Positions 6,512 through 34,986 are shown, counted from the stretch's first letter. The stretch is 64,000 nucleotides of DNA from Gemmatimonadota bacterium (GCA_030747075.1 JASLLL010000005.1:48216-112215), one strand, 5' to 3'. Translations and numbers: made by a program. The notes: generated by a model not told the origin, from the sequence alone.

Positions 6512-7420
6512 TCACGACCTTCGGGCCCGCTCACGAGGATGGGCGCTTCTATGGACCTCGGAGAGGAGCGTCGTGTCCACTCGCGTGTAAATCTGCGTCG
6601 TGGACAGGTCTGCATGGCCCAGAAGCTCCTGAACGACGCGCAGGTCCGCCCCTCCCTCCAGCAGATGAGTCGCGAAGGAGTGCCGCAGAGTATGGGGAGA
6701 CACACTCCCGCCCAGCCCGGCCGCTCGCGCGTGACGCCGAATCGCAAGCCAGATTCCCGCACGAGAGAGACGCCCCCCGCGCGCGTTCAGAAACAGCGCG
6801 TCTTCGCGCCTGCCCCGAAGAAGCGAAGGCCTCCCCTTCCGCCGCCACGCCTCCACCGCATGGCGGGCGATGCGCCCTACCGGGACCTGGCGTTCCACTT
6901 CTCCCTTGCCTCGAACGCGAACAAGTCCCGGCTCTTCGTCCAGATCTCCCTCATTCACCGAGGCCATCTCCGACGCCCGCAGGCCGGTCGCGTAACCGAA
7001 CTCCAGAAGAGCCGTGTCACGAAGGGCCAATGGGCCTTCCTTCGGCACCGCCGCGAGCAGGCGTTCGATTTCCGGCACCGTCAACGCACCCGGGAGCTTC
7101 CGCGTGCGCCGAGGCCCCACGACTTCGCGCGTCGGATCCTCCCCCGCGAGCCCGGCGCGAAGCGCGCTTCGGTGAAGTCCCCGCACTGCGCTCAGTCTCC
7201 TGCGAACCGTGGTGGGCGCGCGCCCCCGCTTCGTCTCGGACTCCAGGAACTCGGCCACGAGTGTCGGGGTGACATGCTCCACTTCGACCACCTCGCGCTT
7301 CCGCAGTGCCTCCACATACGCCGCAAGATCCCGACGGTACGCGTCCAGCGTGTTCTTCGACGCACCCCGTTCAACCGAGAGTTCATCCAGAAAGCGCCGC
7401 TTCGCGTCCTCCAGCTTCAT
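6512..7420 (-). CDS. xerD: Tyrosine site-specific recombinase XerC/XerD
   Basis: Resolves chromosome dimers at dif sites, probably with a Xer partner. The 302-residue protein has the N-terminal SAM-like core-binding domain (FLDELSVERGASKNTLDAYRR) and a catalytic domain with the full set of active-site residues: Arg in TGLRASE, Lys in VRGKGEVERQVP, His and Arg in HTLRHSFATHLLEGG, His in LLGHADLSTTQIYT and the nucleophilic Tyr in IYTRV. Length and order fit XerC/XerD rather than a phage integrase, and no attachment site or phage gene is nearby. Its ATG overlaps the uvrC stop (ATGA), so it is co-translated with uvrC. Whether it is XerC or XerD cannot be decided from the sequence alone. Confidence 0.92.
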   Translation of the reverse strand: MKLEDAKRRFLDELSVERGASKNTLDAYRRDLAAYVEALRKREVVEVEHVTPTLVAEFLESETKRGRAPTTVRRRLSAVRGLHRSALRAGLAGEDPTREVVGPRRTRKLPGALTVPEIERLLAAVPKEGPLALRDTALLEFGYATGLRASEMASVNEGDLDEEPGLVRVRGKGEVERQVPVGRIARHAVEAWRRKGRPSLLRGRREDALFLNARGGRLSRAGIWLAIRRHARAAGLGGSVSPHTLRHSFATHLLEGGADLRVVQELLGHADLSTTQIYTRVDTTLLSEVHRSAHPRERARRS

Positions 7421-9249
7421 GATGCGTCTCCGGACATCCGTTCCCAGATTGCGCGAGCCAGTTCGACCCCGATCCCCGGGACGGCGGCGATTCCCTCGCG
7501 CCCGGCAAGGCGCAGCCCCTCCGGTGAGCCAAACGCACGCAGAAGAGCCCGCCGCCGCTTCGGCCCGATCCCGGGAATGCCGTCGAGGGCGCTCTCCCGC
7601 ATTCGCTTCCCGCGCTTTCGGAGATGCGCTCTTCGGGCAAACCGGTGCGACTCATCGCGGACTCTCTGAAGCAGTGCCAGCGCGTGATCGCCTTCCTTCA
7701 TACACACCTCGCCCGGACTTCCCGCCAGGCGCACGACTTCCTCGCGCTTGGCCAGCGCCGCGACGGGCACGCCGCCGAGCCCCGCCTCCATCAGCGCCCG
7801 CCGCGCCGCCTCCAGTTGTGCCTCTCCACCATCGACCAGCACGAGATCGGGAATCGTCCCCTCTTCCCGGGCCGTCTTCGCGCGCCGCCCCACGGCTTCC
7901 CCGATCGCGCCCGGGTCGTCTGCCCGCGCGGCAGTTCGAATGCCGAAGGTACGGTATTCCGCACGCGACGGCTGCCCTCCCCGGAACACCACCAGCGATG
8001 CATACGCATCTCGACCCTGCACATGGGAGATGTCGAACCCCTCGATCCGGCCCGGGAGCCCCGGGAGCCCCAGCACCGCCGCCAGTTCGACGAGCGCCGC
8101 GTCCCGCGTTTCCACCCGTTCCGCACCCGCCCCCACCGCCACCGCCGCATTGTGGTCGGCCATCTCCAGAAGCCTCGCGCCGTCGCCGCGGCTGGGCACC
8201 CGAAGGCGAACGCGACGACCGGCCCTCTCCCCCAGCCAGCTCTCAAGGACGGGCGCGTCCGCAACCCGGGCAGGCAGCAGGATCTGTGGCGGAATGGTGG
8301 ATCTGGAACGATAGAACCCGAGCAGAAGAACGCGCGCCACCTCCGCCGGGGAATCCTCCGGGCCGCACTCCACATCCAATCGATCCCTCCCCACGACGCG
8401 CCCTTCCCGCAGATGAATGAGAACGCCCGTGCCCCGGCTGCCGTCCCGCGCAAAACCGAGCGCGTCGAGATTCCCACGCCCGAGAGTGACATGCTGGGTT
8501 TCGAGAGTGCTTCGGAGAGAGCGAAGTCGATCGCGGATGCGCGCCGCCTCCTCATAGCGACGATCCCGGGACGCCCGCGCCATGTCCTCTTCCAGCGCCG
8601 AGAGAATGCCCACGCCCCGGCCGCCGAGGAAGCTCATCACCTCCTCCACGATTCTCCGGTACTCCGCCGGATCCCCATCTCCGCGACACGGGGCCACACA
8701 CCTCCCCAGCTGATGGTCCAGGCAACCTCGCTCGGACATGCCCTCCGTCAGGCGGATCCGGCAGGTCGGCAGCGGAAAGGCCGCCCCCAGCGCACGCAGC
8801 GCACTTCGCATGGATCCCACATCGGTGTACGGCCCGAAATACCGACTGCCGTCCTCGACCACCTCGCGCGTCGGAACCACGCGAGGATACGGTTCCCCGA
8901 GCGTCACCTTCAGGTACGGATAGCGTTTGTCGTCCCGGTACACCACATTGTACCGGGGTCGGTATTCGCGAATCAGGTTGTATTCCAGAAGCAGCGCTTC
9001 GACCTCGGTTCTCGTGACGATGGTCTCCACCGAGTCGGTCTGCGACACCGTGCGCTTCACCTTGACGGCGGGGTCCGCGGTGGGCGCGAAGTAACTTCGA
9101 ACTCGCGTGCGAAGAACTTTCGCCTTCCCGACATAGATGACCGCTCCCTCGTCATCCCGGAAGAGGTAGACGCCCGGTGCCCGCGGAAGCTCGGCCGCCT
9201 CTCGCGCCAGACGCTTCCGCCGGACGGCGGAGGAACTCGCCTCGCTCAC
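7417..9249 (-). CDS. uvrC: Excinuclease ABC subunit C
   Basis: Makes both incisions in UvrABC nucleotide excision repair. The 610-residue protein carries the N-terminal GIY-YIG nuclease domain (APGVYLFRDDEGAVIYVGKA, residues about 24-43), a UVR domain near residue 205 for UvrB contact, and an RNase H-like central nuclease with EGFDISHVQG and LVLVDGGEAQLEAA. A tandem helix-hairpin-helix segment lies at the C-terminus (LDGIPGIGPKRRRALLRAFG and AVPGIGVELARAIW). All parts are present in the usual order. The start is a GTG at 9249 overlapping the murJ stop (GTGA), and its stop overlaps the xerD start. Confidence 0.97.
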   Translation of the reverse strand: MSEASSSAVRRKRLAREAAELPRAPGVYLFRDDEGAVIYVGKAKVLRTRVRSYFAPTADPAVKVKRTVSQTDSVETIVTRTEVEALLLEYNLIREYRPRYNVVYRDDKRYPYLKVTLGEPYPRVVPTREVVEDGSRYFGPYTDVGSMRSALRALGAAFPLPTCRIRLTEGMSERGCLDHQLGRCVAPCRGDGDPAEYRRIVEEVMSFLGGRGVGILSALEEDMARASRDRRYEEAARIRDRLRSLRSTLETQHVTLGRGNLDALGFARDGSRGTGVLIHLREGRVVGRDRLDVECGPEDSPAEVARVLLLGFYRSRSTIPPQILLPARVADAPVLESWLGERAGRRVRLRVPSRGDGARLLEMADHNAAVAVGAGAERVETRDAALVELAAVLGLPGLPGRIEGFDISHVQGRDAYASLVVFRGGQPSRAEYRTFGIRTAARADDPGAIGEAVGRRAKTAREEGTIPDLVLVDGGEAQLEAARRALMEAGLGGVPVAALAKREEVVRLAGSPGEVCMKEGDHALALLQRVRDESHRFARRAHLRKRGKRMRESALDGIPGIGPKRRRALLRAFGSPEGLRLAGREGIAAVPGIGVELARAIWERMSGDAS

Positions 9250-10814
9250 TGCCGCCCCGCTCGTCTCCGGAAGACCGCGACCACGTCGGCCAGTTCACGA
9301 TGGCGCAGCAGACGCCCCGCGACGAGCCACAGACTCAGTCCGCCCACCACGCCGCCCGCCACTTCTCCGACGCGCCCCACCGGCGCTCCCAGGGCTGCGC
9401 CCGCCACACAACCCACGCCCAGCGCAAGGGTCGCGGCCAGCGTCCGGACGACGGAGCCCGTCAGCGCCCCGCGTCCCCGCAGCCCGATCCGGCCGCGCAA
9501 TCCCGCAAGGAGAAGGCCGGTGTTGAGGCACGCCGCCAGCGAGGTCGCCAGCGCCAGGCCACGCAACCCCATGGGGCCCACCAGCGCGAAGTTCAGCACA
9601 ATGTTCGTCCCCATCGCCACACACGCGATCCGTACCGGCGTCTTCGTGTCCTGCACGGAGTAGTACCCTTGCGCCAGCCCCTTCACCAGCCCGAACGCCG
9701 GCAGACCCAGCGCGTAGAACGCGACAGCTCCCGCCGTCATCGGCGTGGAATGCGCCGCGGTAAACTCCCCGTACTGGAAGAGGAGGCGCACGATCGGCTC
9801 CGACAGGATCATGAGCCCCGCCGCCGCCGGCAGAAGGAGCGCAAACAGAAGTCGCAGCGAATGCGCGAGCCCCTCGCGAAGTTGCGCAAGGTCACCCCGT
9901 GCCGCGCGCATGGAGAGGTCCGGAAGCGCCGCCGTCGATATGGCCACGCCGATGACGCCCATCGGGAGAAGGGTCACGCGGTTTCCGAGACGCAGCGCGG
10001 AGAGCGAACCTTCCTCCAGCCGGAGTGCCAACAGCGTGTCGACCAGCAGATTCACCTGCGTCACGCCGAACGCCAACAGCCCCGGCAGCATGAGAGCTCC
10101 GATCCGCCTCACATCCGGATCGGACGGCTTCCATGCGGGCGTAATGGGAAGCCCCAGTCGGCGCATGACCGGGAAGTGGGCGAACCAGGCCAGAAGCCCC
10201 CCCGCCAGCCCTCCGAGGGCGAAGACGACCGCGCGGCTCTCCAGACTTCCCCCGCGAAGCACCGCCACGCCCGCGGCCGACAGAAACGACAGATTCAGGA
10301 GAATCGGAGCCAGCGCAGGAATCCGGAAATGACGGAGGCTGTTGAGCGCAGCCCCCGCCAGCGCCGCTCCCCCAGCGAACAGGAGATACGGAAACAGGAT
10401 ACGCAACAGTCTGACGGCGTAGTCGAACGCGGCCGGATCCGCCGACCAGTCCCGCGCGTACAGGCGCACGAGCGGTTCCGCAAGGAACTCTCCCGCCAGC
10501 GTCAGGACAAGGAGCACCCCGAAGAGAGACCCGGCCACACGCCGGAGAAGGACCCCTCCGGCCCGGTCCCCCCGGCGCTCCCGGACCTCGGTGAAGACGG
10601 GGACGAAGGCTGGATTGAGGTTCCCCTCGCCGACGATGCGGCGAAAGAAGTTCGGCAGGAGAAACGCCAGATTGAAGGCATCGGCGACAAAGCCCGTCCC
10701 GAAAAGAACGGCAAAGGCGGTGTCCCGCGCCAGCCCGAATACCCGGCTCAGAAGCGTCGCGGCCCCGATTCCCGTCGCCTGCCGGGTTACCGGCCGGATC
10801 CCGCCCCCCTCCAT
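9246..10814 (-). CDS. murJ: Lipid II flippase MurJ (MviN)
   Basis: Polytopic inner-membrane protein that flips lipid II to the periplasmic face for peptidoglycan synthesis. The 522 residues form about fourteen hydrophobic segments. The N-terminus TLLSRVFGLARDTAFAVLFG and NFFRRIVGEGNLNPAFVPVF are signatures of the MviN/MurJ branch of the MOP superfamily. The frame is open up to 10907, but the ATG at 10814 is preferred: it is preceded by GGGGAGGG with a five-base gap and the extra upstream residues have no MurJ character. It is the first gene of the murJ-uvrC-xerD run and is divergent from rpsT, with about 140 bases between the two starts. Confidence 0.95.
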   Translation of the reverse strand: MEGGGIRPVTRQATGIGAATLLSRVFGLARDTAFAVLFGTGFVADAFNLAFLLPNFFRRIVGEGNLNPAFVPVFTEVRERRGDRAGGVLLRRVAGSLFGVLLVLTLAGEFLAEPLVRLYARDWSADPAAFDYAVRLLRILFPYLLFAGGAALAGAALNSLRHFRIPALAPILLNLSFLSAAGVAVLRGGSLESRAVVFALGGLAGGLLAWFAHFPVMRRLGLPITPAWKPSDPDVRRIGALMLPGLLAFGVTQVNLLVDTLLALRLEEGSLSALRLGNRVTLLPMGVIGVAISTAALPDLSMRAARGDLAQLREGLAHSLRLLFALLLPAAAGLMILSEPIVRLLFQYGEFTAAHSTPMTAGAVAFYALGLPAFGLVKGLAQGYYSVQDTKTPVRIACVAMGTNIVLNFALVGPMGLRGLALATSLAACLNTGLLLAGLRGRIGLRGRGALTGSVVRTLAATLALGVGCVAGAALGAPVGRVGEVAGGVVGGLSLWLVAGRLLRHRELADVVAVFRRRAGRQ

Positions 10815-10874
10815 CGCGTCCCTCCCCGCTGACAGTGGACATTCCACGTTTCCGCCGCAGTCGTCAAATGACGC

Positions 10875-10903
10875 TTGACCCGCCCCGAACTCCCCCCTAG
10901 AAT
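10875..10903 (+). promoter_or_regulatory. Sigma-70-type promoter for rpsT
   Basis: TTGACC at 10875-10880, a 17-base spacer, then TAGAAT at 10898-10903; each box matches the consensus at five of six positions. Transcription would begin near 10910 and leave a leader of about 45 bases before the rpsT ATG, with GGAGAGG as ribosome binding site. It is one of the strongest promoters readable in the window. Confidence 0.75.
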
Positions 10904-10954
10904 CCATCGGTCCGTATAGGGATATCGAAACTCACGCTTGGAGAGGCTCTACTT

Positions 10955-11209
10955 ATGCCCCAGCACAAGTCGTGCGAAAAGCGCCTGCGTCAGACCAAGA
11001 CGGCCAATGAACGCAATCGCGCCATTCGCAGCGCACTCCGAACCATCGTGCGCAAGTTCCGCGAAGCCAGCGGCGAGGAAGCCCGGGACCTGTTCACCCG
11101 GAGTTGCTCCGTTCTGGACCGCGCTGCCAGCCGGAATGTCATCCACCGCCGCCAGGCGGATCGCCGGAAGAGCCGATTGGCTCTCGAACTGGCTCGGAAG
11201 ACGGACTGA
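10955..11209 (+). CDS. rpsT: 30S ribosomal protein S20
   Basis: Small primary-binding protein of the 30S subunit that contacts 16S rRNA helices at the bottom of the body. The 84 residues are rich in Lys and Arg and follow the S20 pattern: KSCEKRLRQTKTANERNRA, then IRSALRTIVRKF, and a C-terminal helix with SRNVIHRRQADRRKSRLA. The length is normal. It is a single-gene transcription unit with its own strong promoter upstream and a hairpin terminator downstream. It lies divergent from murJ and convergent with proS. S20 next to murJ is a common arrangement in several phyla. Confidence 0.95.
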   Translation: MPQHKSCEKRLRQTKTANERNRAIRSALRTIVRKFREASGEEARDLFTRSCSVLDRAASRNVIHRRQADRRKSRLALELARKTD

Positions 11210-11233
11210 CCGGCCCACGCTGCCTGAATTCAG

Positions 11234-11264
11234 ACCCCCCGGCTTATACCCGGGGGGTTTCTTC
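11234..11264 (+). terminator. Rho-independent terminator of rpsT, overlapping the proS 3' end
   Basis: A nine-base-pair stem pairs 11234-11242 with 11250-11258, ACCCCCCGG against CCGGGGGGT, around a seven-base loop, and TTTCTT follows on the plus strand. The minus strand lacks a good T tract, so it mainly serves rpsT. The last codons of proS lie in the stem, and the proS TAA stop (11244-11246) lies within the loop. Confidence 0.8.
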
Positions 11265-12953
11265 GTTCAGCATCCGCGCCACCACCTCCGGCGCGGACTC
11301 CACGGAGACCTTCTCGACCTGACCGTCGCGTCGGCGCCGCACCTCAACCAGTCCTTCCGCGAGATTCCGCTCTCCGATGGTCACCCGCACGGGGCTGCCC
11401 ACCAGGTCCGCATCCTTGAACTTCGCGCCCGGCCGGCCAGAGCGATCGTCCAGCAATGTCTCGTCCGCGGGAAGCGCGTCAGCGATGGTCCGTGCCGCGA
11501 TCATCGATTCCTCATGCGCGGCCTTGACCGGCGTGACGGTCACCTCATACGGAGCCAGAGCCACGGGCCAGATGATGCCGTTCTCGTCGTGGTTCTGCTC
11601 CACAGCCGCCGCCACCGTCCGCGTCGTCCCGATGCCATAGCACCCCATGACACTCGTCCGGTTCTTGCCGTCCTTGTCAAGAAACTGCGCCCCCATCGCC
11701 CCGGAGTACTTCGTCCCCAGCTTGAAGATGTGGCCGACCTCGATCCCCCGGATCGCCTGCATCGGTCCCCCCCCGCGCGGGCACAGGTCTCCGGCGCGAG
11801 CCGTCGCAATATCACACCAGTCGTCCGGGTCGAAGTCCCGTCCAGGGTTCACCCCCGTGAAGTGCGCATCTTCCCGGTTGGCACCGGTCACTCCGTCCGC
11901 AATGCCCCGCACGGAGTAGTCCGCGATCACGCGCACCCCGGAGAGTCCCACCGGACCCGCGAATCCGACCGGGGCCTTCGTGACGCGCGTGATCACTTCC
12001 GGAGAAGCCAGCTCCACCCGCTTCCCGAGGAAGCGCGCCAGCTTGCCCTCGTTGACATCCCGATCGCCACTGACCAGTGCAACCACCGGGCCATCCTCCG
12101 TCTCGTAAACCAGCGTCTTCACCAGTCGCCCCGGCTCGACACCGAGGAACGCCGCCACCTCATCCACGGACTTCAGCCCGGGCGTGTCCACTTCCGCAAG
12201 ATCCGCACTCCCTTCGGGCGACTCGCCCCCCGGATCCAACCGGTCCGCGCGTTCGTCAGAAGCGCAGTAGCCGGATTCCTCGCTGAAGAGAATCGTCGCC
12301 TCTCCGGACTCCGCCAGCACCATGAACTCGTGGCAGACCTCTCCCCCGATCGCGCCGGAATCCGCCTCCACCACGCGAAACTCCAACCCGCATCGCGTGA
12401 AAATCCGTGTGTAAGCTTCGTGCATCTTCCGATAGGTCTCGGCCAGGCAGTCTTCGGTTTCATGGAAGCTGTACGCGTCCTTCATGCCGAACTCGCGTGC
12501 CCGCATCAAGCCGAATCGAGGCCGGATCTCGTCGCGGAACTTGGTCTGGATCTGGTAGAGATTCACCGGCAGCTGCCGATAGGACGAAACCTCGGTCCGG
12601 ATAAGATCGGTGATCACTTCTTCGTGGGTCGGTCCCAGCGCGAAGAAGCGGCCATGCCGATCCTCCATTCGCATCATCTCTTTCCCGTAAACATCCCAGC
12701 GCCCCGTCTCCTTCCAGAGATCCTCCGGCGAAAGAACGGGCATGCGGACTTCCTGCGCACCGGCCCGGTTCATCTCCTCGCGGACAATGGCCTCTACCTT
12801 CAGCACCGATCGCCACCCAAGCGGAAGCATGGTGTACAAGCCGGAGCCGACTCTTCGCATCATTCCCGCCCGGAGAAGCAAACGATGCGAAGGGATCTCC
12901 GCGTCCGAGGGGACCTCTTTCATGGTGGGGATCAGCGCGCGACTCCACAGCAT
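11244..12953 (-). CDS. proS: Prolyl-tRNA synthetase (bacterial type)
   Basis: Charges tRNA-Pro. From the ATG at 12953 the protein has 569 residues, the usual bacterial ProRS length. Class II motif 1 lies in GLYTMLPLGWRSVLKVEAIV, motif 2 in FRDEIRPRFGLMRAREFGMKD, and motif 3 in GCYGIGTTRTVAA. The insertion (editing) domain between motifs 2 and 3 is present, with VKTLVYETEDGPVVALVSGD. The frame is open far upstream, across the end of the aldolase gene, but AGGAGG stands ten bases before the 12953 ATG and MLWSRALIPTMKEVP is the typical ProS opening. It follows the microcompartment operon on the same strand after only 34 bases, so it may be read through from it. Confidence 0.96.
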   Translation of the reverse strand: MLWSRALIPTMKEVPSDAEIPSHRLLLRAGMMRRVGSGLYTMLPLGWRSVLKVEAIVREEMNRAGAQEVRMPVLSPEDLWKETGRWDVYGKEMMRMEDRHGRFFALGPTHEEVITDLIRTEVSSYRQLPVNLYQIQTKFRDEIRPRFGLMRAREFGMKDAYSFHETEDCLAETYRKMHEAYTRIFTRCGLEFRVVEADSGAIGGEVCHEFMVLAESGEATILFSEESGYCASDERADRLDPGGESPEGSADLAEVDTPGLKSVDEVAAFLGVEPGRLVKTLVYETEDGPVVALVSGDRDVNEGKLARFLGKRVELASPEVITRVTKAPVGFAGPVGLSGVRVIADYSVRGIADGVTGANREDAHFTGVNPGRDFDPDDWCDIATARAGDLCPRGGGPMQAIRGIEVGHIFKLGTKYSGAMGAQFLDKDGKNRTSVMGCYGIGTTRTVAAAVEQNHDENGIIWPVALAPYEVTVTPVKAAHEESMIAARTIADALPADETLLDDRSGRPGAKFKDADLVGSPVRVTIGERNLAEGLVEVRRRRDGQVEKVSVESAPEVVARMLNEETPRV

Positions 12954-12987
12954 TGGTTCCCTGCCTCCTCTTTCCCTGGAGATGTCC

Positions 12988-13758
12988 TTACCTGTTCGAG
13001 TCCCCGCGAAGGGAATCGCGAACGCGGTCCGCAATCGTGGCCGCGAGCTGCCGATCCGCGTCGGACAACCCGCCACTCCGGGGAGTCGACACCCCGCAGG
13101 AAGCCAGCCCCTCGCGTATCCCGTGTCGCCCTCTCTCATCAAGAAGGCGCTCCACCTGCTCCCTGCCCAGCGGATGCGCCCCACCCAACAGCCGCGCCAC
13201 CAGGAGAACCCGCGCCGCGTGTTCGACCGTCTCCATCCGGCGGTACGCGCTGGAAACGCAACTCCCCACGGTCACCACACCGTGATTCGCCAGAAGAACC
13301 GCGTCGTGATCGGCGATCCACGGATCCAGCGACCGGGACAGATCCTCGGTCCCCGGCGTGCCGTATGCGGCGACCGGCACCCCCCCGAGCCCCAGGATGA
13401 CCTCCGGCAGGACACATTCCGACAGGTCCGCCCCGGCCGCTGCAAAGCCGGTCGCCACCGGCGGGTGGGCATGAACCACCGCCTTCACATCCGGCCGGAG
13501 ATCATAGATGCGAAGATGCATCCCTGTCTCGGAAGAAGGAGTGCCGCGCCCTTCCCGCACCTTCCCGGCGCGACCCAGAAGGAGCAGGTCCTCCGCGACC
13601 ATCTCCCCCTTGGCGCGGCCGGACGGCGTGATCAGGAGGGTGTCCTCCTGGCCGAGCAGCGCAGAGACATTGCCATCGGTGCCCGCGACATACTGCCGGG
13701 TGTCCAGCCGCGCACAGACGCGAACGATCTCCCGGCGAACTTCTTCAGGAGTGGTCAC
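12988..13758 (-). CDS. Class II aldolase (L-fuculose-1-phosphate aldolase-like), microcompartment operon
   Basis: Zinc-dependent class II aldolase/adducin-family protein of 256 residues. Family landmarks are present: TDGNVSALL (substrate loop, about 27-35), ITPSGRAKG, SSETGMHLRIY with the catalytic Glu near 77, the metal-binding pair in VVHAHPPVA near 96-98, and a third His in LLANHGVVT near 157. By analogy with FucA it would split a ketose-1-phosphate such as fuculose- or rhamnulose-1-phosphate into DHAP and lactaldehyde; the true substrate is not shown by the sequence. Its GTG start overlaps the preceding BMC-P stop (GTGA). In Planctomycetes-type metabolosomes the same kind of aldolase supplies the aldehyde for the encapsulated dehydrogenase, and that role is likely here. 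Confidence 0.82.
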   Translation of the reverse strand: MTTPEEVRREIVRVCARLDTRQYVAGTDGNVSALLGQEDTLLITPSGRAKGEMVAEDLLLLGRAGKVREGRGTPSSETGMHLRIYDLRPDVKAVVHAHPPVATGFAAAGADLSECVLPEVILGLGGVPVAAYGTPGTEDLSRSLDPWIADHDAVLLANHGVVTVGSCVSSAYRRMETVEHAARVLLVARLLGGAHPLGREQVERLLDERGRHGIREGLASCGVSTPRSGGLSDADRQLAATIADRVRDSLRGDSNR

Positions 13759-14036
13759 TTCTCAGGAACCCTCCACGGGTGGTGGTCGACTACACCGACA
13801 ATCACGGTGCGAATGGGCGGCTGGTCGAGGCCGAGCACCTGTCCGGCCGAGTTCCCTTCATCCAGGACGAGGACTTCGTCCCCGACGCCGGCGTCCACGG
13901 TATCCACCGCCAGATACGCTGCCCCCCGAAGCACGCCGGTCGCGTCCATCGGGCGCACCAGCAGGAGCTTTCGCCCGGCGAGTGTTTCCTCCTTCGCGGT
14001 GGCCCAAACGCTCCCGATGACCTGCCCGAGTTTCAC
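13755..14036 (-). CDS. Microcompartment vertex protein, BMC-P (EutN/CcmL family), copy 3
   Basis: Pentameric shell protein that would cap the vertices of the icosahedral compartment. The 93 residues begin MKLGQVIGSVWATAKEETLAG, a standard EutN/CcmL opening, and continue with the beta-barrel pattern (LLLVRPMDATG, YLAVDTVDAGVGDEVLVLDEGNSA) and the closing VIVGVVD strand. The frame is open a few codons further upstream, but the GTG at 14036 overlaps the stop of the preceding vertex gene as GTGA and gives the usual family length. It is one of three BMC-P paralogs in the operon. Three different pentamers are typical of aldolase-containing metabolosomes. Confidence 0.93.
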   Translation of the reverse strand: MKLGQVIGSVWATAKEETLAGRKLLLVRPMDATGVLRGAAYLAVDTVDAGVGDEVLVLDEGNSAGQVLGLDQPPIRTVIVGVVDHHPWRVPEK

Positions 14037-14326
14037 GCGTCCTCCTCCGGGCACAGCTCTTCCTCAACGGAGAGATCGTCGACGATCCCGAGAATCGCCG
14101 CATCCACCGGCGCACACTTCCCGGGGAATGCCTTCGCGGCCTCGCGGGACAACACAAAGAACACGCGGTCCCCGGCGCGAGCGGACACCTGATCCGCCGC
14201 GATCAACGGGGCGCCGCTTGTCTTCCCGCGCTCGTCCTCCGGCTGGATTACGAGGAATCGGAAGCCCTCCAGGCGAGGGTTCTTCCGCGTCGCCCAGACG
14301 GTGCCGATGACGCGCGCCAGATTCAT
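14033..14326 (-). CDS. Microcompartment vertex protein, BMC-P (EutN/CcmL family), copy 2
   Basis: A 97-residue EutN/CcmL-family protein beginning MNLARVIGTVWATRKNPRLEG. LIAADQVSARAGDRVFFVLS is the characteristic central stretch and AAILGIVDDLS the closing strand. A short acidic tail (EEELCPEEDA) is not found in the other two copies and may face the cytosol or a partner. The ATG at 14326 overlaps the BMC-T stop as ATGA, and its stop overlaps the next vertex gene, so the three shell genes are tightly coupled. Differences among the three copies in the loops after the first strand suggest they are not interchangeable, but this is inference. Confidence 0.93.
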   Translation of the reverse strand: MNLARVIGTVWATRKNPRLEGFRFLVIQPEDERGKTSGAPLIAADQVSARAGDRVFFVLSREAAKAFPGKCAPVDAAILGIVDDLSVEEELCPEEDA

Positions 14327-14922
14327 CCGGCACCCCCCTCGTCCGTGCTTTCGGTGAGCATCCTCCCCACCCGCGCCGCCAGTTCCGGATGCGGACCCGC
14401 GAGAACCTCGGTTCGAACATGAAAGCCGCGTTCATCAATGGGCGCACGCGCCGCTTCCACGGCCGCCTGCACCGCGGCGACATCTCCGGTCAGCGTGAAG
14501 AAGCCCTTGCCGCCGATCCCGCGACCGGCCCCCAGTTCCAGAACGCTCACCGTCGCGGCCTTGGCGGCCGCGTCCGCTCCGACAATCGCCGATGCCACCG
14601 TCAAGGTCTCCACGATCCCGATCGCCTCGCCCACCTTCAGCGCGGACGGCCCCCGGCCAATGGCGGGCGGCACCTCCGGGTGCACACGCGCAAGGAGAAG
14701 TTCGTCCAGGATGCAGCCGGGTGCCACCGATCGACCGCTGTCCAGCGAGGCCTCCACCTCCGCCACCCCCCCACCGAAGATCACGAGAAACTTGCCGGGG
14801 GAAACGGGCGACGCTCGAAGCAGAGCCACGCGAGCGGTCTTGAGTACTTCGTCCGCCGCACGCACTCCGGCCGCAATGGACGAATACTCCAGAAGCCCCA
14901 GCGCATCCTCGACCGTCTTCAC
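14323..14922 (-). CDS. Tandem-domain shell protein, BMC-T (PduT-like)
   Basis: Trimeric shell protein built of two fused BMC domains in 199 residues. Domain 1 runs from about 6 to 90 (ALGLLEYSSIAAGVRAADEV ... SPGKFLVIFGG) and domain 2 from about 97 to 185 (VGEAIGIVETLTVASAIVGAD ... GDVAAVQAAVEAA). The alignment by eye to PduT is close over the whole length, including LVLANIHP-like LLLARVHPEVPPAIG. PduT binds a [4Fe-4S] cluster at its pore through Cys38 in the sequence CPGKF; here the equivalent is SPGKF, so that cysteine is a serine and the pore cluster is probably absent. Start GTG overlaps the PduS-like stop (GTGA). Confidence 0.92.
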   Translation of the reverse strand: MKTVEDALGLLEYSSIAAGVRAADEVLKTARVALLRASPVSPGKFLVIFGGGVAEVEASLDSGRSVAPGCILDELLLARVHPEVPPAIGRGPSALKVGEAIGIVETLTVASAIVGADAAAKAATVSVLELGAGRGIGGKGFFTLTGDVAAVQAAVEAARAPIDERGFHVRTEVLAGPHPELAARVGRMLTESTDEGGAG

Positions 14923-16193
14923 GCTCTCTCCCTTACCAGCGTCAGCGAACCATTCAACGCGCGAACTCTCCCCGAGAAGGGCGCGTGAATGCGCACTTCC
15001 TGCTCCCCGTCCCCGCCTCGGGCGACCACCTGCCCCTTCCAGACATCCTCCCCAGTCCGGACGACCGCCGAGACGCGGAGTCCGTCCTCTTGGGCCAGCG
15101 ACAGGCGAACGCGCCCGATCCGGTCGCGGACATCGGTCCGGGCCTCCACCGCTCCTCCGATCCCGAGCCTGCGTGCGAACGCCTCGCGCGGGACGAAGCG
15201 AACCGCTGACGGCGACCGCTGCCGCACCCCTTGCGAACGAACACGCTGCGCGACTTCCGATGCGAGTCTACCCACCGGAATCGCCGACGGACAGACGGTA
15301 TCGCACAATCGGCATTCCAGACACGATCCGGACGCGCTCGGAGGATACGGTCCTCCATCCCGCCCCGGCCAGCGAAGAGCGTCCACCAGGCTTCGCGGCC
15401 GCACCCCCGCATCGGCAGCCGGGCAGATGGTGTTGCACAGGAAGCAGCGGGAGCAGCCCGCTTCCACGCGAGAGAGCGCGCTGTTGAAGGAGCGCGCCTC
15501 CCCTTCGGCCAGTGGGTGATCGGGCGGAAGGAAGATCATCGCACCCTCCCCGGCGGAAATGCCGTGTCGCGTTCCGACCGCTCGCCCACGACTCCCGCTC
15601 CAGGCGAACGCCACCGCATCGGGTGACTTGCGCCCTCCCGCCATCCGCGCAAGCGTGGCAACCGTCGTGCCAAGGGGAACGCGAAAAGTGCCCGGACTGC
15701 GCACATCTCCGGCAACCGTCACCCATGCGTCGAGCAGAACACGACCGCGCCTCGCGTGCCCGGCCGCCACCGCAACCCATGCGGGAAAGATGCGAAACGC
15801 GCCTGCGGGAATGCCTTCAAGACGCGGCGTTGCGGAGAGCCATGTCCGCAGGGCGGACTCCTCTCCCATCGGATAGAGATCCGGAAGTTCCATCGTCGCG
15901 ATCCGCCCGCAGCGCGCCACCAGAGCTTCGAGCGTCTGTGCCTGCGCCTCTTCCGCTCCGACTGAGGCGATGAACACCGGGGCGCCGCCGCATCCCTCTC
16001 CGAGAACGCCCGCGCCCGCCACGAGATCCTCGGGACACTCCGTCAGGAGCGCCGTCTCCGAGGCCTGCCCCGGAGCGGCGTCCACGACCGTCACGACCAC
16101 CGGCCCGGCCTCCCGCGAATCCGTGCGGGGAAGCCGCCGGGGAATCCCTCCCCAGGCGAACAGGTCAGACAGCGTGGGGGAGTTCACGGTCAC
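14919..16193 (-). CDS. PduS/RnfC-like iron-sulfur protein of the microcompartment
   Basis: Electron-transfer protein of 424 residues related to PduS, the cobalamin reductase of propanediol metabolosomes. Two CxxCxxCxxxCP clusters near residues 250 and 295 (CSRCFLCNTICP, CLECRLCDTVCP) should each bind a [4Fe-4S] centre. A SLBB-like segment precedes them (VTVAGDVRSPGTFRVPLGTT). A barrel-sandwich module closes the protein (SAVVRTGEDVWKGQVVARG, IHAPFSGRVRAL). The N-terminus is unusual: I cannot find the glycine-rich GAGGAGFP loop or the ECDPLL-like block with which PduS and RnfC bind NADH and FMN. It may accept electrons differently. Start GTG overlaps the dehydrogenase stop. Confidence 0.82.
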   Translation of the reverse strand: MTVNSPTLSDLFAWGGIPRRLPRTDSREAGPVVVTVVDAAPGQASETALLTECPEDLVAGAGVLGEGCGGAPVFIASVGAEEAQAQTLEALVARCGRIATMELPDLYPMGEESALRTWLSATPRLEGIPAGAFRIFPAWVAVAAGHARRGRVLLDAWVTVAGDVRSPGTFRVPLGTTVATLARMAGGRKSPDAVAFAWSGSRGRAVGTRHGISAGEGAMIFLPPDHPLAEGEARSFNSALSRVEAGCSRCFLCNTICPAADAGVRPRSLVDALRWPGRDGGPYPPSASGSCLECRLCDTVCPSAIPVGRLASEVAQRVRSQGVRQRSPSAVRFVPREAFARRLGIGGAVEARTDVRDRIGRVRLSLAQEDGLRVSAVVRTGEDVWKGQVVARGGDGEQEVRIHAPFSGRVRALNGSLTLVRERA

Positions 16194-17653
16194 ACGATGC
16201 GGAAGGAATCGACGAGCGTGCAGCGACGGAACCGGGTGAAGTCCCGCGCAGTGGTCATGCCCTCTCCGGTCGGACTGGCGATGGTGAAGCTGGTATAGCC
16301 CTCTCCGCCTTCGCCCAGTCCCTTGTAGTGTGGACCGTTCTTCACGAAGATCGAGCAGTCGATGACCCGGGCCATGCGCGAAAGCTTCTCGATGTTCCGC
16401 GAATAGATGGAAGCGCTGTGGCGGTTGCCTCCTTCCACCTCCCGCGCGAAGTCGATGGCGGTGTCGACATCCCGAGCGCGGGTGATCCCCAGCACCGGCA
16501 TCATGAGTTCCGACCAGAGGAAGGGATGTCCGGCATCCACTTCAGCGACCAGAAGCCGCGTGTCGGTCGGGCCGTCGACTCCGGCCGCGTCCAGGATGAC
16601 GCCCGCGTCCCGGCCGATCAGTTCCCGGTTGGGAACGGATGCACACCCGTCGCCGCGGTCTTCCGCAAGGACGACTCGACGGACGGCATCCAGTTCTGTT
16701 CCGGTCAACTCGTAAGCACCCTCGGCGGACAGACGATCCATCAGATCCCGGGCGACGCGATCGACCACGATGACCTCTTTCTCGTCCGTGCAGATGATGT
16801 TGTTGTCCAGCGAGGCACCCCGGACAATCCCCCACGCCGCCAGATCCAGATCCGCCGTGGTATCCACCACCACGGGCGGATTGCCGGGTCCGGCGGTGAT
16901 GGCCCGTTTGCCCACACTCATCGCTTCCTTCACAACCCCCGCGCCGCCCGTCACGACGATGAGGCGAACCGTCTCGTCGCGCATCAGTGCCTGCGTTCCC
17001 TCGATGGACGGTTCCGCGAGAGTGGTGAAGACATTCGGAGGGCCGCCTTCGTTGCGGACGGCCTCTTCCAGAAGGCGCACCGTTCGGAGCGAAGTCTCCT
17101 TCGCGCCCGGATGCGGAGCGAATACCGCGGCGTTGCCCCCCGCCAGCATTCCGATGCCGTTGTTGATCACCGTCTCTGACGGATTCGTGGAGGGGGTGAC
17201 CGAAAGCACGACTCCGTACGGCGCACGCTCCTCCAGCGTGAGTCCGTGGTCTCCCGTCCGGGCCCACGGGGCGAGGTCTTCAATGCCGGGGGTCTTGCGG
17301 GCCACCAGGAGGTTCTTGATGACCTTGTCTTCCACACGCCCGAGGCCGGTCTCGCGAACGGCCAGCTCCGACAGCTCCGCCGCATGGGTCTCCGTGGTGT
17401 GGCGGATGGCCGCGATCCACTTCTCCCGATCCTCCAGCGTGGTTTCCGCCAGATCAAGGAAGGCGCGTCTCGCCGCTGCCACGGCCTCTTCTGTGGTCTC
17501 GAAAACGGCATGACCCGTCGTGGATGCTGCGGGCCGCGAGGGCTGCACAGGAGCGTTTGCGGAGGCTGTCTCCCCTCCGACGAGACCCTCGGCTTCCAGC
17601 CTCGCGAGAACCTCTCCCACGATGGAGTCGATCCGCCGCGTGTCCGTTGCCAC
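16190..17653 (-). CDS. pduP: CoA-acylating aldehyde dehydrogenase (PduP/EutE type), encapsulated
   Basis: Oxidises an aldehyde with NAD+ and CoA to acyl-CoA; this is the signature enzyme of metabolosomes. The 487 residues start with an amphipathic helix (RIDSIVGEVLARLEAEG, residues 7-23) and a Pro/Ala linker, the classical encapsulation peptide that docks cargo to the shell. Then follow VLSVTPSTNPSETVINNGI, the Rossmann part, the catalytic Cys in LDNNIICTDEKEV, and LWSELMMPVLGITRA. If the aldolase makes lactaldehyde, the product would be lactoyl-CoA; with other substrates, propionyl- or acetyl-CoA. Its stop overlaps the PduS-like start, and a BMC-P gene lies 17 bases upstream. Confidence 0.93.
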   Translation of the reverse strand: MATDTRRIDSIVGEVLARLEAEGLVGGETASANAPVQPSRPAASTTGHAVFETTEEAVAAARRAFLDLAETTLEDREKWIAAIRHTTETHAAELSELAVRETGLGRVEDKVIKNLLVARKTPGIEDLAPWARTGDHGLTLEERAPYGVVLSVTPSTNPSETVINNGIGMLAGGNAAVFAPHPGAKETSLRTVRLLEEAVRNEGGPPNVFTTLAEPSIEGTQALMRDETVRLIVVTGGAGVVKEAMSVGKRAITAGPGNPPVVVDTTADLDLAAWGIVRGASLDNNIICTDEKEVIVVDRVARDLMDRLSAEGAYELTGTELDAVRRVVLAEDRGDGCASVPNRELIGRDAGVILDAAGVDGPTDTRLLVAEVDAGHPFLWSELMMPVLGITRARDVDTAIDFAREVEGGNRHSASIYSRNIEKLSRMARVIDCSIFVKNGPHYKGLGEGGEGYTSFTIASPTGEGMTTARDFTRFRRCTLVDSFRIV

Positions 17654-17670
17654 CGCTCCCCCTCGTCGGG

Positions 17671-17979
17671 TCAGGCGCCGACCCCGGGCCGCGCCTTGTC
17701 GTAGACGACCTCTCCGTGAGTCTCCAGTGCATCCACAATGGCCATGATCACTGCGTCCACAGGAGCATCAAGAGTCTGCTCGGTCAGTCGGGCTGAACTT
17801 CCCGCGGCCGTCAGGACGATCTCTCCCGCTCCGGCCCCGACGGCATCCACCGCCACGACAAAGGCTCCCGTCGGCTTCATGTCAAGCCCGAGCCCCTCCA
17901 CGACCTGCAAGGTGAAGCCTGACAGACGGTCTTCTTTGCGAGTGGCCACCACGGTGCCCACAACTCTTCCCAGCGTCAT
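17671..17979 (-). CDS. Microcompartment vertex protein, BMC-P (EutN/CcmL family), copy 1
   Basis: EutN/CcmL-family pentamer protein of 102 residues: MTLGRVVGTVVATRKEDRLSG at the start, FVVAVDAVGAGAGEIVLTAA in the centre and AVIMAIVDALE at the end. This copy is the closest of the three to the generic pattern and sits next to the BMC-H genes. Its tail (THGEVVYDKARPGVGA) is slightly longer than in the other copies. It ends 17 bases before the dehydrogenase start and begins 27 bases after the second BMC-H, so it is part of the same transcription unit. Vertices need only twelve pentamers per shell, so low expression relative to BMC-H is expected. Confidence 0.93.
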   Translation of the reverse strand: MTLGRVVGTVVATRKEDRLSGFTLQVVEGLGLDMKPTGAFVVAVDAVGAGAGEIVLTAAGSSARLTEQTLDAPVDAVIMAIVDALETHGEVVYDKARPGVGA

Positions 17980-18006
17980 TCAGACCTCCGACCCCTGCCG
18001 CAAAGA

Positions 18007-18297
18007 CTAAGCCTGGACAGGTGCCTCCTGCCCGACCGGCAGGATGTTCTCCACATTGGCGTGCGGACGCGGGATCACATGGACGGTGACCAGCTCACCC
18101 ACCTTGTTGGCGGCGGCACTGCCGGCGTCGGTCGCGGCCTTCACGGCTGCCACATCCCCCCGCACCACGGCGGTCACATACCCGCCCCCAATCTTCTCGT
18201 ATCCCACAAGGGTGACATTCGCCGCCTTGACCATGGCGTCCGATGCCTCCACGAGAGCCACGAAACCGCGCGTTTCAATCAGCCCCAGAGCCTCCAT
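18007..18297 (-). CDS. Microcompartment hexameric shell protein, BMC-H, copy 2
   Basis: Single-domain BMC protein of 96 residues that would form the hexameric tiles of the facets. It reads [20 protein letters not shown] at the start, the canonical PduA/CcmK opening. [14 protein letters not shown]-like [20 protein letters not shown] follows with the pore loop, and [13 protein letters not shown] is the last helix. The ATG at 18297 is chosen over a GTG one codon upstream because GGGAGG stands seven bases before it. The C-terminal tail after [12 protein letters not shown] is short. It differs from the neighbouring BMC-H chiefly around the pore (GGG against GSG), so the two may have different permeability; this is inference. 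Confidence 0.95.
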
Positions 18298-18366
18298 CAC
18301 AAAACCTCCCGGTGCGCGGGTTCGACATCCCGCACGGCGGACCCGCCCTTGGGGGCAGGCATTCGA

Positions 18367-18639
18367 CTACTTCAAGAGGATATCCTCAAGCGAGGAATGC
18401 GGACTCGGAATCACATGGCTGCTCACCAGTTCCCCGACCCGCTCCGCCGCCTCGACGCCCGCGGCCACGGCCGCCTTGACCGCGCCCACATCACCCCGGA
18501 CCAGTGTGGTCACGAGTCCGGATCCGACCTTCTCATACCTTGTGAGTGTCACGCGGGCCGCCTTCACCATGGCGTCCGAGGCCTCGATCAGCCCCACATA
18601 ACCGCGCGTCTCGATCAGCCCGAGGGCCTGACCTTCCAA
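18367..18639 (-). CDS. Microcompartment hexameric shell protein, BMC-H, copy 1 (TTG start)
   Basis: First gene of the microcompartment operon; 90 residues of BMC-H type with [40 protein letters not shown] and [13 protein letters not shown]. No ATG precedes the domain. A GTG at 18681 would add 14 residues unlike any BMC-H. The TTG at 18639 gives the family length, and its upstream GGAGGAAGGGGGG is one of the best ribosome binding sites in the region, so I use TTG. It shares most of its sequence with the second BMC-H 67 bases downstream, pointing to duplication. A strong ribosome binding site paired with a weak start codon may set shell-protein level. Confidence 0.93.
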
Positions 18640-19332: not shown

Positions 19333-19950
19333 TCAAGAGAGGAGGCGGGAGCAGCCTTCCAGCACTTCGCAGTAGAGGCGGTAGTTTGCGGCAAGAAGCC
19401 GCTTGCTCACATTCTGATACGCGATCCCGAGATCGGTTCCGATCTCCATCAGCGTGCCACCGCTTCGGCGATGGTGGATGGCCTGCCACTGAGCCGCGGT
19501 CCAGCCCGTCTCCAGAAAGTCCATGGTCCTGAAGAGCGCATCCAGTCCGGCATTGATGCGCGGATCCGGCGTCAGACCCCGTGTCCCCGGGCGCTTCGAC
19601 TGATCGAGAGAGCGAAAGGCGGCACCCGCCAGCCCGGAAGCTTCCACTCCGCCGCCAATGCCCAGCCCCGCAGTGATTCCGAGCGGGACGGCGGCCGGGT
19701 CCTGCCGAAGACTGGTCCGCAGAGCATGCAGGAGCGGGAGCGCCGCGGCGACATCTTCGACATCCATCTGCCCGGCAAGCCCGTCCTCGGACGCGGGCAG
19801 CCAGCGAGCTCCCGCGCCGGGAGACGCCAGCATTCGCCGGGCCGCATCCTGCACGGGGGCGAGATCGTCCGGCACACTTTGGAGCGCGCCCCCGAGCGGG
19901 CGGACTTCCAGAAGAATCACGACGCCGGTCGACTCAAAGTCCACAGCCAT
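19333..19950 (-). CDS. SatD-like protein with C-terminal helix-turn-helix (tentative)
   Basis: A 205-residue protein. The N-terminal half has a beta-alpha pattern with GITAGLGIGGGVEASGLAGAA and SLDQSKRP near residues 92-120, which resembles the RxGIGxG...A...AR layout of the SatD family. The C-terminal 55 residues (WTAAQWQAIHHRRSGGT, IGTDLGIAYQNVSKRLLAAN) look like a sigma-region-4 or LuxR-like helix-turn-helix. SatD proteins are poorly understood; most have been linked to stress responses. It is transcribed away from the GH13 glycosidase, with overlapping divergent promoters between them, so it might regulate that gene. The family call is from pattern memory only and the function is inferred. 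Confidence 0.45.
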   Translation of the reverse strand: MAVDFESTGVVILLEVRPLGGALQSVPDDLAPVQDAARRMLASPGAGARWLPASEDGLAGQMDVEDVAAALPLLHALRTSLRQDPAAVPLGITAGLGIGGGVEASGLAGAAFRSLDQSKRPGTRGLTPDPRINAGLDALFRTMDFLETGWTAAQWQAIHHRRSGGTLMEIGTDLGIAYQNVSKRLLAANYRLYCEVLEGCSRLLS

Positions 19951-34648: not shown

Positions 34649-34733
34649 GCGCAAGCGAAACCACCCTTATGCACGAAAGAGGCCAGATGGCCCTTCGTGG
34701 TACACGGGAAGTCACCGCGCCCCGGACCTGTCT

Positions 34734-34762
34734 ATTATCGGCTCTCATTCCTCCTGATTCAA
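34734..34762 (-). promoter_or_regulatory. Probable promoter of the S8 protease
   Basis: On the minus strand TTGAAT (34762-34757), a 17-base spacer and GATAAT (34739-34734), five matches to TATAAT. It lies about 85 bases before the ATG. Confidence 0.55.
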
Positions 34763-34829
34763 GCCCCGGACCCGGGTGCGGTGCCAAAGCTGGATGGAAC
34801 GCCACTTCGCTCACCCCCGCGCTTCCCGA

Positions 34830-34858
34830 TTGCCCATTTTGCCCGGGCACAGTATCAA
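34830..34858 (+). promoter_or_regulatory. Probable promoter of nifJ
   Basis: TTGCCC at 34830-34835, a 17-base spacer and TATCAA at 34853-34858. The predicted leader is about 120 bases long. It lies back to back with the protease promoter. Confidence 0.45.
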
Positions 34859-34986
34859 TGGCCGTTGTGCCAATCCGGATTCGCGGCAGACGAGTCGCCT
34901 TTCCGGGCGACCCCGGCCTCATCCCGGCCCGGGTCCCTCGGACTTCCGGTGAAAGCGGTAGTCACCTCAAGAACGATGGAGTCCCC

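What the first reader, a model, noticed from the sequence alone, without database searches (positions are those of the whole stretch)
12988..18639. Compact metabolosome operon: aldolase, PduP, PduS, one BMC-T, two BMC-H, three BMC-P, without PduL or alcohol dehydrogenase
Nine consecutive minus-strand genes encode a complete shell set plus a class II aldolase and an aldehyde dehydrogenase bearing a targeting helix. Six junction-linked genes overlap by four bases, so stoichiometry is probably set by coupling. Planctomycetes-type loci combine aldolase, PduP and three BMC-P but normally carry no PduS; Pdu-type loci carry PduS and PduT but no aldolase. This locus mixes both and lacks the usual CoA- and NAD-recycling genes within the window. 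Gene composition is seen; the substrate and the hybrid classification are inference.
Basis: partly seen in the sequence, partly recalled or inferred. Interest (0 to 1): 0.75.

Follow-up and report, generated by a model that had tools for sequence, protein, structure and literature searches.

The report
Aldolase microcompartment with altered PduS
This bacterium, from a phylum with only five genomes held, carries a nine-gene kit for a protein-walled organelle that probably splits a sugar phosphate and oxidises the toxic aldehyde released; the kit belongs to a known family, but it carries a PduS-like iron-sulfur protein that has lost its flavin/NADH signature motifs.

Summary
The nine-gene operon is real and the coordinates hold: H1-H2-P1-AldDH-PduS-BMC-T-P2-P3-class II aldolase, the last six genes joined by 4-base overlaps. 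PduL, Pta-type transacetylases and Fe-type alcohol dehydrogenases over cut-off are missing from the whole genome, not just the window. The 'hybrid of Planctomycetes-type and Pdu' reading does not hold. Gene order and AldDH kinship place the locus among HO/SPU-like metabolosomes of many phyla; 19 of 21 genomes with sister loci also lack PduL. In those loci DeoC+RpiB and a class II aldolase replace each other without overlap. PduS with a class II aldolase is already published (GRM5, SPU-like). The unusual parts: (1) PduS, in 2 of 3 loci of this phylum, keeps both tetracysteine motifs but has lost the glycine-rich and NAAECEP motifs tied to FMN/NADH binding, and its BMC-T neighbour has Ser where PduT has the pore Cys; (2) the genome's only strong FGGY-kinase match is glycerol kinase, arguing against canonical fucose/rhamnose breakdown, while MTAP and MtnA are present, so a nucleoside-derived ketopentose-1-phosphate is a testable substrate. 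New variant of a known kind. Substrate and PduS role are inference.

The parts
18367..18639 (-). BMC-H shell protein H1 (pore motif KVGSGL), likely TTG start at 18639
   Evidence: PF00936 104 bits; ortholog at the same place in L021 and G004; start read
18007..18300 (-). BMC-H shell protein H2 (pore motif KIGGGY, as in the Myxococcal L014 hexamer)
   Evidence: PF00936 106 bits; best single-domain PDB hit is the Haliangium hexamer HO-5815; motifs
17671..17979 (-). BMC-P pentamer P1
   Evidence: PF03319 95 bits; best PDB hit is the BMC-P of the Haliangium shell, entry 5v74, ahead of all others by 31 bits
16190..17653 (-). CoA-acylating aldehyde dehydrogenase (PduP type) with N-terminal encapsulation-peptide-like helix
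   Evidence: NCBIfam PRK15398 620 bits; N-termini of relatives; tree
14919..16193 (-). PduS-like protein: two CxxCxxCxxxCP motifs, SLBB and RnfC_N domains kept; glycine-rich and NAAECEP motifs lost
   Evidence: same loss in the G004 ortholog, 44% identical
14323..14922 (-). BMC-T shell protein; Ser where PduT has the cluster-binding Cys
14033..14326 (-). BMC-P pentamer P2
   Evidence: PF03319 94 bits
13755..14036 (-). BMC-P pentamer P3 (start at GTG 14036 gives a 4-base overlap with P2)
   Evidence: PF03319 83 bits; start consistent with the 92-aa L021 ortholog
12988..13758 (-). Class II aldolase (PF00596) with FucA-type catalytic residues (SSE, HAH, NHG) and a C-terminal tail that looks like an encapsulation peptide
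   Evidence: PF00596 157 bits; alignment and tails; tail comparison

Best explanation
A metabolosome of the HO/SPU-like group. Shell proteins H1, H2, BMC-T and three BMC-P enclose two cargo enzymes. The class II aldolase cleaves a ketose-1-phosphate to DHAP plus a short aldehyde, and the CoA-acylating AldDH oxidises that aldehyde to an acyl-CoA with NAD+. Because the genome has no PduL, no Pta-type enzyme and no Fe-type alcohol dehydrogenase over cut-off, CoA and NAD+ are probably not recycled in the lumen by the usual enzymes: acyl-CoA and NADH leave through the shell, and acyl-CoA can be used in the cytosol, for example by an ADP-forming acyl-CoA synthetase. The most likely aldehyde has two carbons, because sister loci with homologous AldDH and shell carry acetaldehyde-forming DeoC in place of this aldolase; the substrate would then be a nucleoside-derived ketopentose-1-phosphate made by MTAP and MtnA (5-deoxy- or 5-methylthioribulose-1-phosphate, the DHAP shunt) or ribulose-1-phosphate. 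PduS is no longer a NADH:FMN oxidoreductase; it is kept as an iron-sulfur or shell-docking protein of unknown partner. Shown: genes, order, motif losses, presence and absence calls. Inferred: encapsulation, substrate, flow of CoA and NAD, role of PduS. Rough weights: enclosed aldolase plus AldDH 0.9; HO/SPU kinship 0.85; C2 aldehyde 0.5; DHAP-shunt substrate 0.3.
For: Gene families. Same order in other phyla, with DeoC and RpiB in 9 loci and the class II aldolase in 6 others plus the window, never together. The window lineage's AldDH sits among DeoC-associated AldDHs, and the aldolase types are interleaved on that tree (several weak forks). FucA-type residues SSE/HAH/NHG in the aldolase. Targeting helices: AldDH N-terminus and, in all three genomes of the phylum, a C-terminal tail on the aldolase after a variable linker; the tails of G003 and G004 resemble their own AldDH helices (1/2000 and 49/2000 shuffles). 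No PTAC, PTA or Fe-ADH genome-wide. ADP-forming acyl-CoA synthetase candidate, 743 aa. MtnA and MTAP over equivalog cut-offs. The only FGGY match over cut-off is glycerol kinase. No satellite shell genes. Motif loss in PduS.
Against: The window's own aldolase tail does not resemble its AldDH helix by the same test (1532/2000). The aldolase scores below every curated cut-off, so its substrate is not set by sequence. MtnA is also present in G001, where no such AldDH was found, so the two are not tightly linked; MtnA and MTAP also serve ordinary methionine salvage, and MtnB, MtnC/D and MtnK were not searched for. Zn-type alcohol dehydrogenases, other kinase families and DeoC outside the stretches held were not searched for genome-wide. 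The 743-aa synthetase is below its family cut-offs.
Confidence: 0.45

Rival explanations
1. A fucose/rhamnose metabolosome that works like the PVM type: the aldolase cleaves L-fuculose- or L-rhamnulose-1-phosphate to DHAP plus lactaldehyde, which AldDH turns into lactoyl-CoA.
For: Class II aldolase as signature enzyme, BMC-P triplet and AldDH, as in PVM (PMC4207490, PMC8217296). FucA models match at about 117 bits.
Against: No FGGY sugar kinase other than glycerol kinase over cut-off in the genome; no PTAC. No regulator, kinase or transporter among the nearest genes scanned: on the aldolase side ProRS, MurJ and UvrC (window) or MurJ (L021) or S20 and UvrC (G004). Sister AldDHs go with DeoC. 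No PVM AldDH reference was obtained, so kinship to PVM was not tested directly.
Confidence: 0.2
2. A ribulose-1-phosphate variant: purine nucleoside phosphorylases give ribose-1-phosphate, an isomerase gives ribulose-1-phosphate, and the aldolase releases DHAP plus glycolaldehyde, which AldDH oxidises to glycolyl-CoA.
For: The best NCBIfam model for the G003 and G004 orthologs is ribulose-1-phosphate aldolase (121 and 113 bits); two purine nucleoside phosphorylases in the genome.
Against: Those scores are far below the cut-off of 300. The only PF01008 protein fits MtnA, and scores 223 against 314 for the ribose-1,5-bisphosphate isomerase model.
Confidence: 0.15
3. PduS still moves electrons: its two iron-sulfur clusters carry electrons between a lumen redox partner other than NADH and the cytosol, with BMC-T as docking site, as proposed for PduS/PduT.
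For: Both tetracysteine motifs are intact in two orthologs only 44% identical, and pduS stays next to the BMC-T gene, as in published pduS/pduT pairs (PMC6325248). G003 and G004 BMC-T have a Cys four residues before the PduT position.
Against: No FMN/NADH motifs and no pore Cys at the PduT position; the same operon works, or at least persists, without PduS in G003.
Confidence: 0.2

Closest known systems
HO-type BMC (Haliangium ochraceum type; Sutter et al. 2021, PMC8217296), 'type II' with two BMC-P and an aldolase in the main locus
   Same: Order H-P-AldDH-BMC-T-P-P-aldolase, BMC-P triplet, no PduL or alcohol dehydrogenase, P1 closest to the Haliangium BMC-P and H2 to HO-5815
   Different: No BMC-T double protein found in the operon; a second BMC-H at the front; PduS between AldDH and BMC-T. 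The paper's supplementary locus diagrams could not be read, so formal typing is open.
SPU loci (PF01791 DeoC + PF02502 RpiB; PMC8217296)
   Same: Homologous AldDH, BMC-T, BMC-H and BMC-P triplet in the same order
   Different: DeoC and RpiB are absent from the locus and replaced by a class II aldolase
SPU-like loci of Latescibacteria (Axen et al. 2014, PMC4207490)
   Same: AldDH, PduS and class II aldolase together
   Different: Those also encode PduL, an RpiB-like protein and acetate kinase; here PduL is absent genome-wide and RpiB is absent from the locus
GRM5 loci (PMC6325248, PMC4207490)
   Same: Class II aldolase, PduS, a BMC-T next to PduS, AldDH
   Different: No glycyl radical enzyme among the nine genes; BMC-T lacks the PduT Cys; PduS lacks the glycine-rich motif reported for GRM homologs
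PVM loci (PMC4207490)
   Same: Class II aldolase, AldDH, BMC-P triplet
   Different: No PduL; acetate kinase, lactate/malate dehydrogenase and DeoR regulator are not in the operon
DrdA / Ald2 of the DHAP shunt (PMC6079011, PMC10986504)
   Same: Class II aldolase; DrdA (6btd) is among the best PDB matches at 91.7 bits; MTAP and MtnA are encoded in the genome
   Different: No published DHAP-shunt aldolase is in a microcompartment in the papers found; the match is no better than to other class II aldolases

Membership tests
HO-type BMC | BMC-P triplet in the locus | tested here: met
   three PF03319 proteins
HO-type BMC | Gene order H-P-AldDH-BMC-T, with two BMC-P and an aldolase following in type II | tested here: met
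   PMC8217296
HO-type BMC | BMC-T double-stacking (BMC-Tdp) shell protein | tested here: inconclusive
   absent from the operon and from the stretches held; the genome-wide PF00936 search finds only the four operon domains, but that model misses some Tdp proteins, such as L007
HO-type BMC | Shell-protein colour HMMs and AldDH clade of the 2021 catalogue | not testable with these tools
   the HMMs and supplementary locus diagrams are not held
SPU | DeoC (PF01791) and RpiB (PF02502) in the locus | tested here: not met
SPU-like (Latescibacteria) | AldDH + PduS + class II aldolase | tested here: met
SPU-like (Latescibacteria) | PduL and RpiB-like protein | tested here: not met
   no PduL genome-wide; no RpiB in the locus or window
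GRM5 | Glycyl radical enzyme in the locus | tested here: not met
   none among the nine genes
PVM | Class II aldolase + AldDH | tested here: met
PVM | PduL-type PTAC | tested here: not met
PVM | AldDH in the PVM clade | not tested
   no PVM reference locus was obtained (searches failed)
PduS (NADH:FMN oxidoreductase) | Glycine-rich GAGGAGFPT and NAAECEP motifs | tested here: not met
   present in E. coli PduS, L012 PduS and G001 RnfC; absent in the window and G004
PduS (NADH:FMN oxidoreductase) | Two tetracysteine [4Fe-4S] motifs | tested here: met
   C247-C257 and C291-C301 invariant
PduT | Pore Cys before PGK | tested here: not met
   VSPGKF in the window against LCPGKF in E. coli PduT

The most novel reading that the evidence does not exclude
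A microcompartment that encloses the last step of the 5'-deoxynucleoside DHAP shunt (or a ribulose-1-phosphate shunt), with a class II aldolase swapped in for DeoC, no in-house CoA or NAD recycling, and a PduS that has become a flavin-free iron-sulfur shell partner.
Probability: 0.2. Interest if true: 0.75.

Novelty: new variant of a known kind. Interest (0 to 1): 0.5.

Why it matters
The HO/SPU-like group is a structural model for shells, yet its function is called enigmatic (PMC8217296). The exchange of DeoC+RpiB for a class II aldolase in otherwise matching loci gives a direct handle on the aldehyde. A genome with no PduL, no Pta-type enzyme and no Fe-ADH over cut-off tests the assumption that metabolosomes recycle CoA and NAD inside. 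A PduS without FMN/NADH motifs beside a BMC-T without the pore Cys separates the iron-sulfur part of PduS from its NADH chemistry.

Tried and rejected
Planctomycetes/Pdu hybrid: rejected on gene order, published GRM5 and SPU-like content, and lack of PduT Cys. Epimerase instead of aldolase: disfavoured by SSE in place of the SSD recalled for AraD (recalled, not tested). PduL just outside the window: rejected genome-wide. Satellite shell loci: none found with PF00936. Canonical fucose/rhamnose route: disfavoured by the FGGY result. PduS as a misread start or sequencing error: disfavoured because G004 shows the same loss. AlphaFold of PduS on a four-row alignment gave mean pLDDT 56; Foldseek returned RnfC and complex I NuoF folds at TM about 0.3, which confirms ancestry only. 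Promoter and terminator scan near chance. The hydrophobic-moment scan did not single out the termini. Two searches centred on other phyla failed on the handle format.

Full report
What is there. The window is G000:C5:48216-112215, in a 2.67 Mb genome of 61 contigs, estimated 100% complete with 0.96% contamination. Start codons that match relatives give 12988-18639 and 4-base overlaps at the last five junctions. The PF00936 search finds no other shell gene in the genome.

Relatives. The phylum has five genomes in the collection. Three hold the AldDH: the window, G003 (record L021, 72% identical) and G004 (71%). All three loci have the same order, but G003 has no PduS in its operon and no match genome-wide, while G004 has one 44% identical. 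G001 and G002, 82% and 67% complete, show no match to the AldDH. In genome contigs the same core order occurs in Gemmatimonadota, Myxococcota, Chloroflexota, Acidobacteriota, Planctomycetota and others. Nine of the 22 loci carry DeoC with RpiB. Five (L001, L008, L019, L020, L021), G004 and the window carry the class II aldolase, and none carries both. The rest show neither within the DNA held; several contigs are short. On the AldDH tree the two kinds are interleaved, although several forks there are weak, so repeated exchange is likely rather than proven.

Known systems. The order fits the published description of HO loci, whose type II main locus contains two BMC-P and an aldolase (PMC8217296). 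Axen et al. list the Haliangium locus among metabolosomes with an incomplete core and argue that cofactor recycling may not be absolutely required (PMC4207490). The lack of PduL is therefore not peculiar to this locus: 19 of 21 genomes with sister loci have none, with the caution that many are drafts. PduS together with a class II aldolase is known from GRM5 (PMC6325248) and from SPU-like Latescibacteria loci (PMC4207490).

What is unusual: PduS. Compared with E. coli PduS (L115), the SPU-type L012 PduS and an RnfC from G001, the window and G004 proteins lack GAGGAGFPT and NAAECEP, and the two tetracysteine motifs are intact. The Pfam 51K domain falls below its cut-off. Published PduS homologs of GRM loci keep the glycine-rich motif (PMC6325248). 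The neighbouring BMC-T has Ser at the position of the PduT Cys. The L012 locus, which pairs PduS with a BMC-T, has the Cys. PMC6325248 also reports that a BMC-T was engineered to hold a cluster by a Ser-to-Cys change in the pore; from memory this was the Haliangium protein, which was not checked here. A NADH-oxidising PduS that passes electrons to a PduT cluster is therefore unlikely. What PduS does instead is not known; that its cysteines are kept at 44% identity argues for function.

What is unusual: the substrate. The genome's strong FGGY match is glycerol kinase, 740 bits against a cut-off of 498; the other match is below cut-off. MtnA is present over its equivalog cut-off (424 against 279), and so is MTAP (322 against 275), with two purine nucleoside phosphorylases. 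MTAP and MtnA would supply 5-deoxy- or 5-methylthioribulose-1-phosphate, which class II aldolases of the DHAP shunt cleave to DHAP and acetaldehyde or methylthioacetaldehyde (PMC6079011, PMC10986504). The exchange with DeoC, whose product is acetaldehyde, points to the same C2 aldehyde. No paper found links this shunt to a microcompartment. The aldolase itself matches ribulose-1-phosphate, fuculose-phosphate and other models about equally and below all cut-offs, so this remains a hypothesis.

Fate of the products. No PTAC, no PTA and no Fe-ADH over cut-off was found. An ADP-forming acyl-CoA synthetase-like protein of 743 aa is present, and a pyruvate:ferredoxin oxidoreductase lies in the window. 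A cytosolic route from acyl-CoA to acid and ATP is plausible but not shown.

Targeting. AldDH N-termini in the phylum share an amphipathic pattern (IDxIVxxVxxRLE). The aldolase in all three genomes ends in a variable linker and a helix-like tail. In G003 and G004 the tail resembles the AldDH helix more than shuffled versions do (1 and 49 of 2000); in the window it does not (1532 of 2000). Encapsulation of the aldolase is therefore supported by the family more than by this copy.

Limits. Draft genomes; absence calls depend on family models. Not searched: Zn-type ADH, LDH/MDH, MtnB-D, MtnK, DeoC genome-wide. Formal typing against the 2021 catalogue was not possible.

Noticed in passing
L013:7210-8751, L016:3792-4646, L012:2165-4462 and six further loci: Sister loci carry DeoC and RpiB, in some as one long frame, and L012 has TIM, RpiB and DeoC in one 765-aa frame; loci with the class II aldolase carry neither.
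   Followed up: partly
window 34486-38574 (+): Pyruvate:ferredoxin oxidoreductase (POR_N, POR, EKR domains), which fits a ferredoxin-based metabolism of acetyl-CoA.
   Followed up: no
G000:C9:67186-67584 (L113:5945-8176): 743-aa ADP-forming acyl-CoA synthetase-like protein, best model 4-hydroxybutyrate--CoA ligase at 577 bits, below its cut-off; PF13607 matches occur in all five genomes of the phylum.
   Followed up: partly
L021:5512-7119; L111:9883-13770; window 7417-13184: The BMC operon lies next to housekeeping genes (ProRS, MurJ, UvrC in the window; MurJ in L021; S20 and UvrC in G004), which suggests vertical inheritance in this phylum.
   Followed up: partly
window 19333-19950 (-): 205-aa frame upstream of the operon on the same strand without a Pfam match; its C-terminal end looks like a helix-turn-helix, unverified.
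   Followed up: no
L014 / G018: A Myxococcales genome with an HO-like locus also has strong PduL matches (252 bits) elsewhere, an exception among the sister genomes.
   Followed up: no
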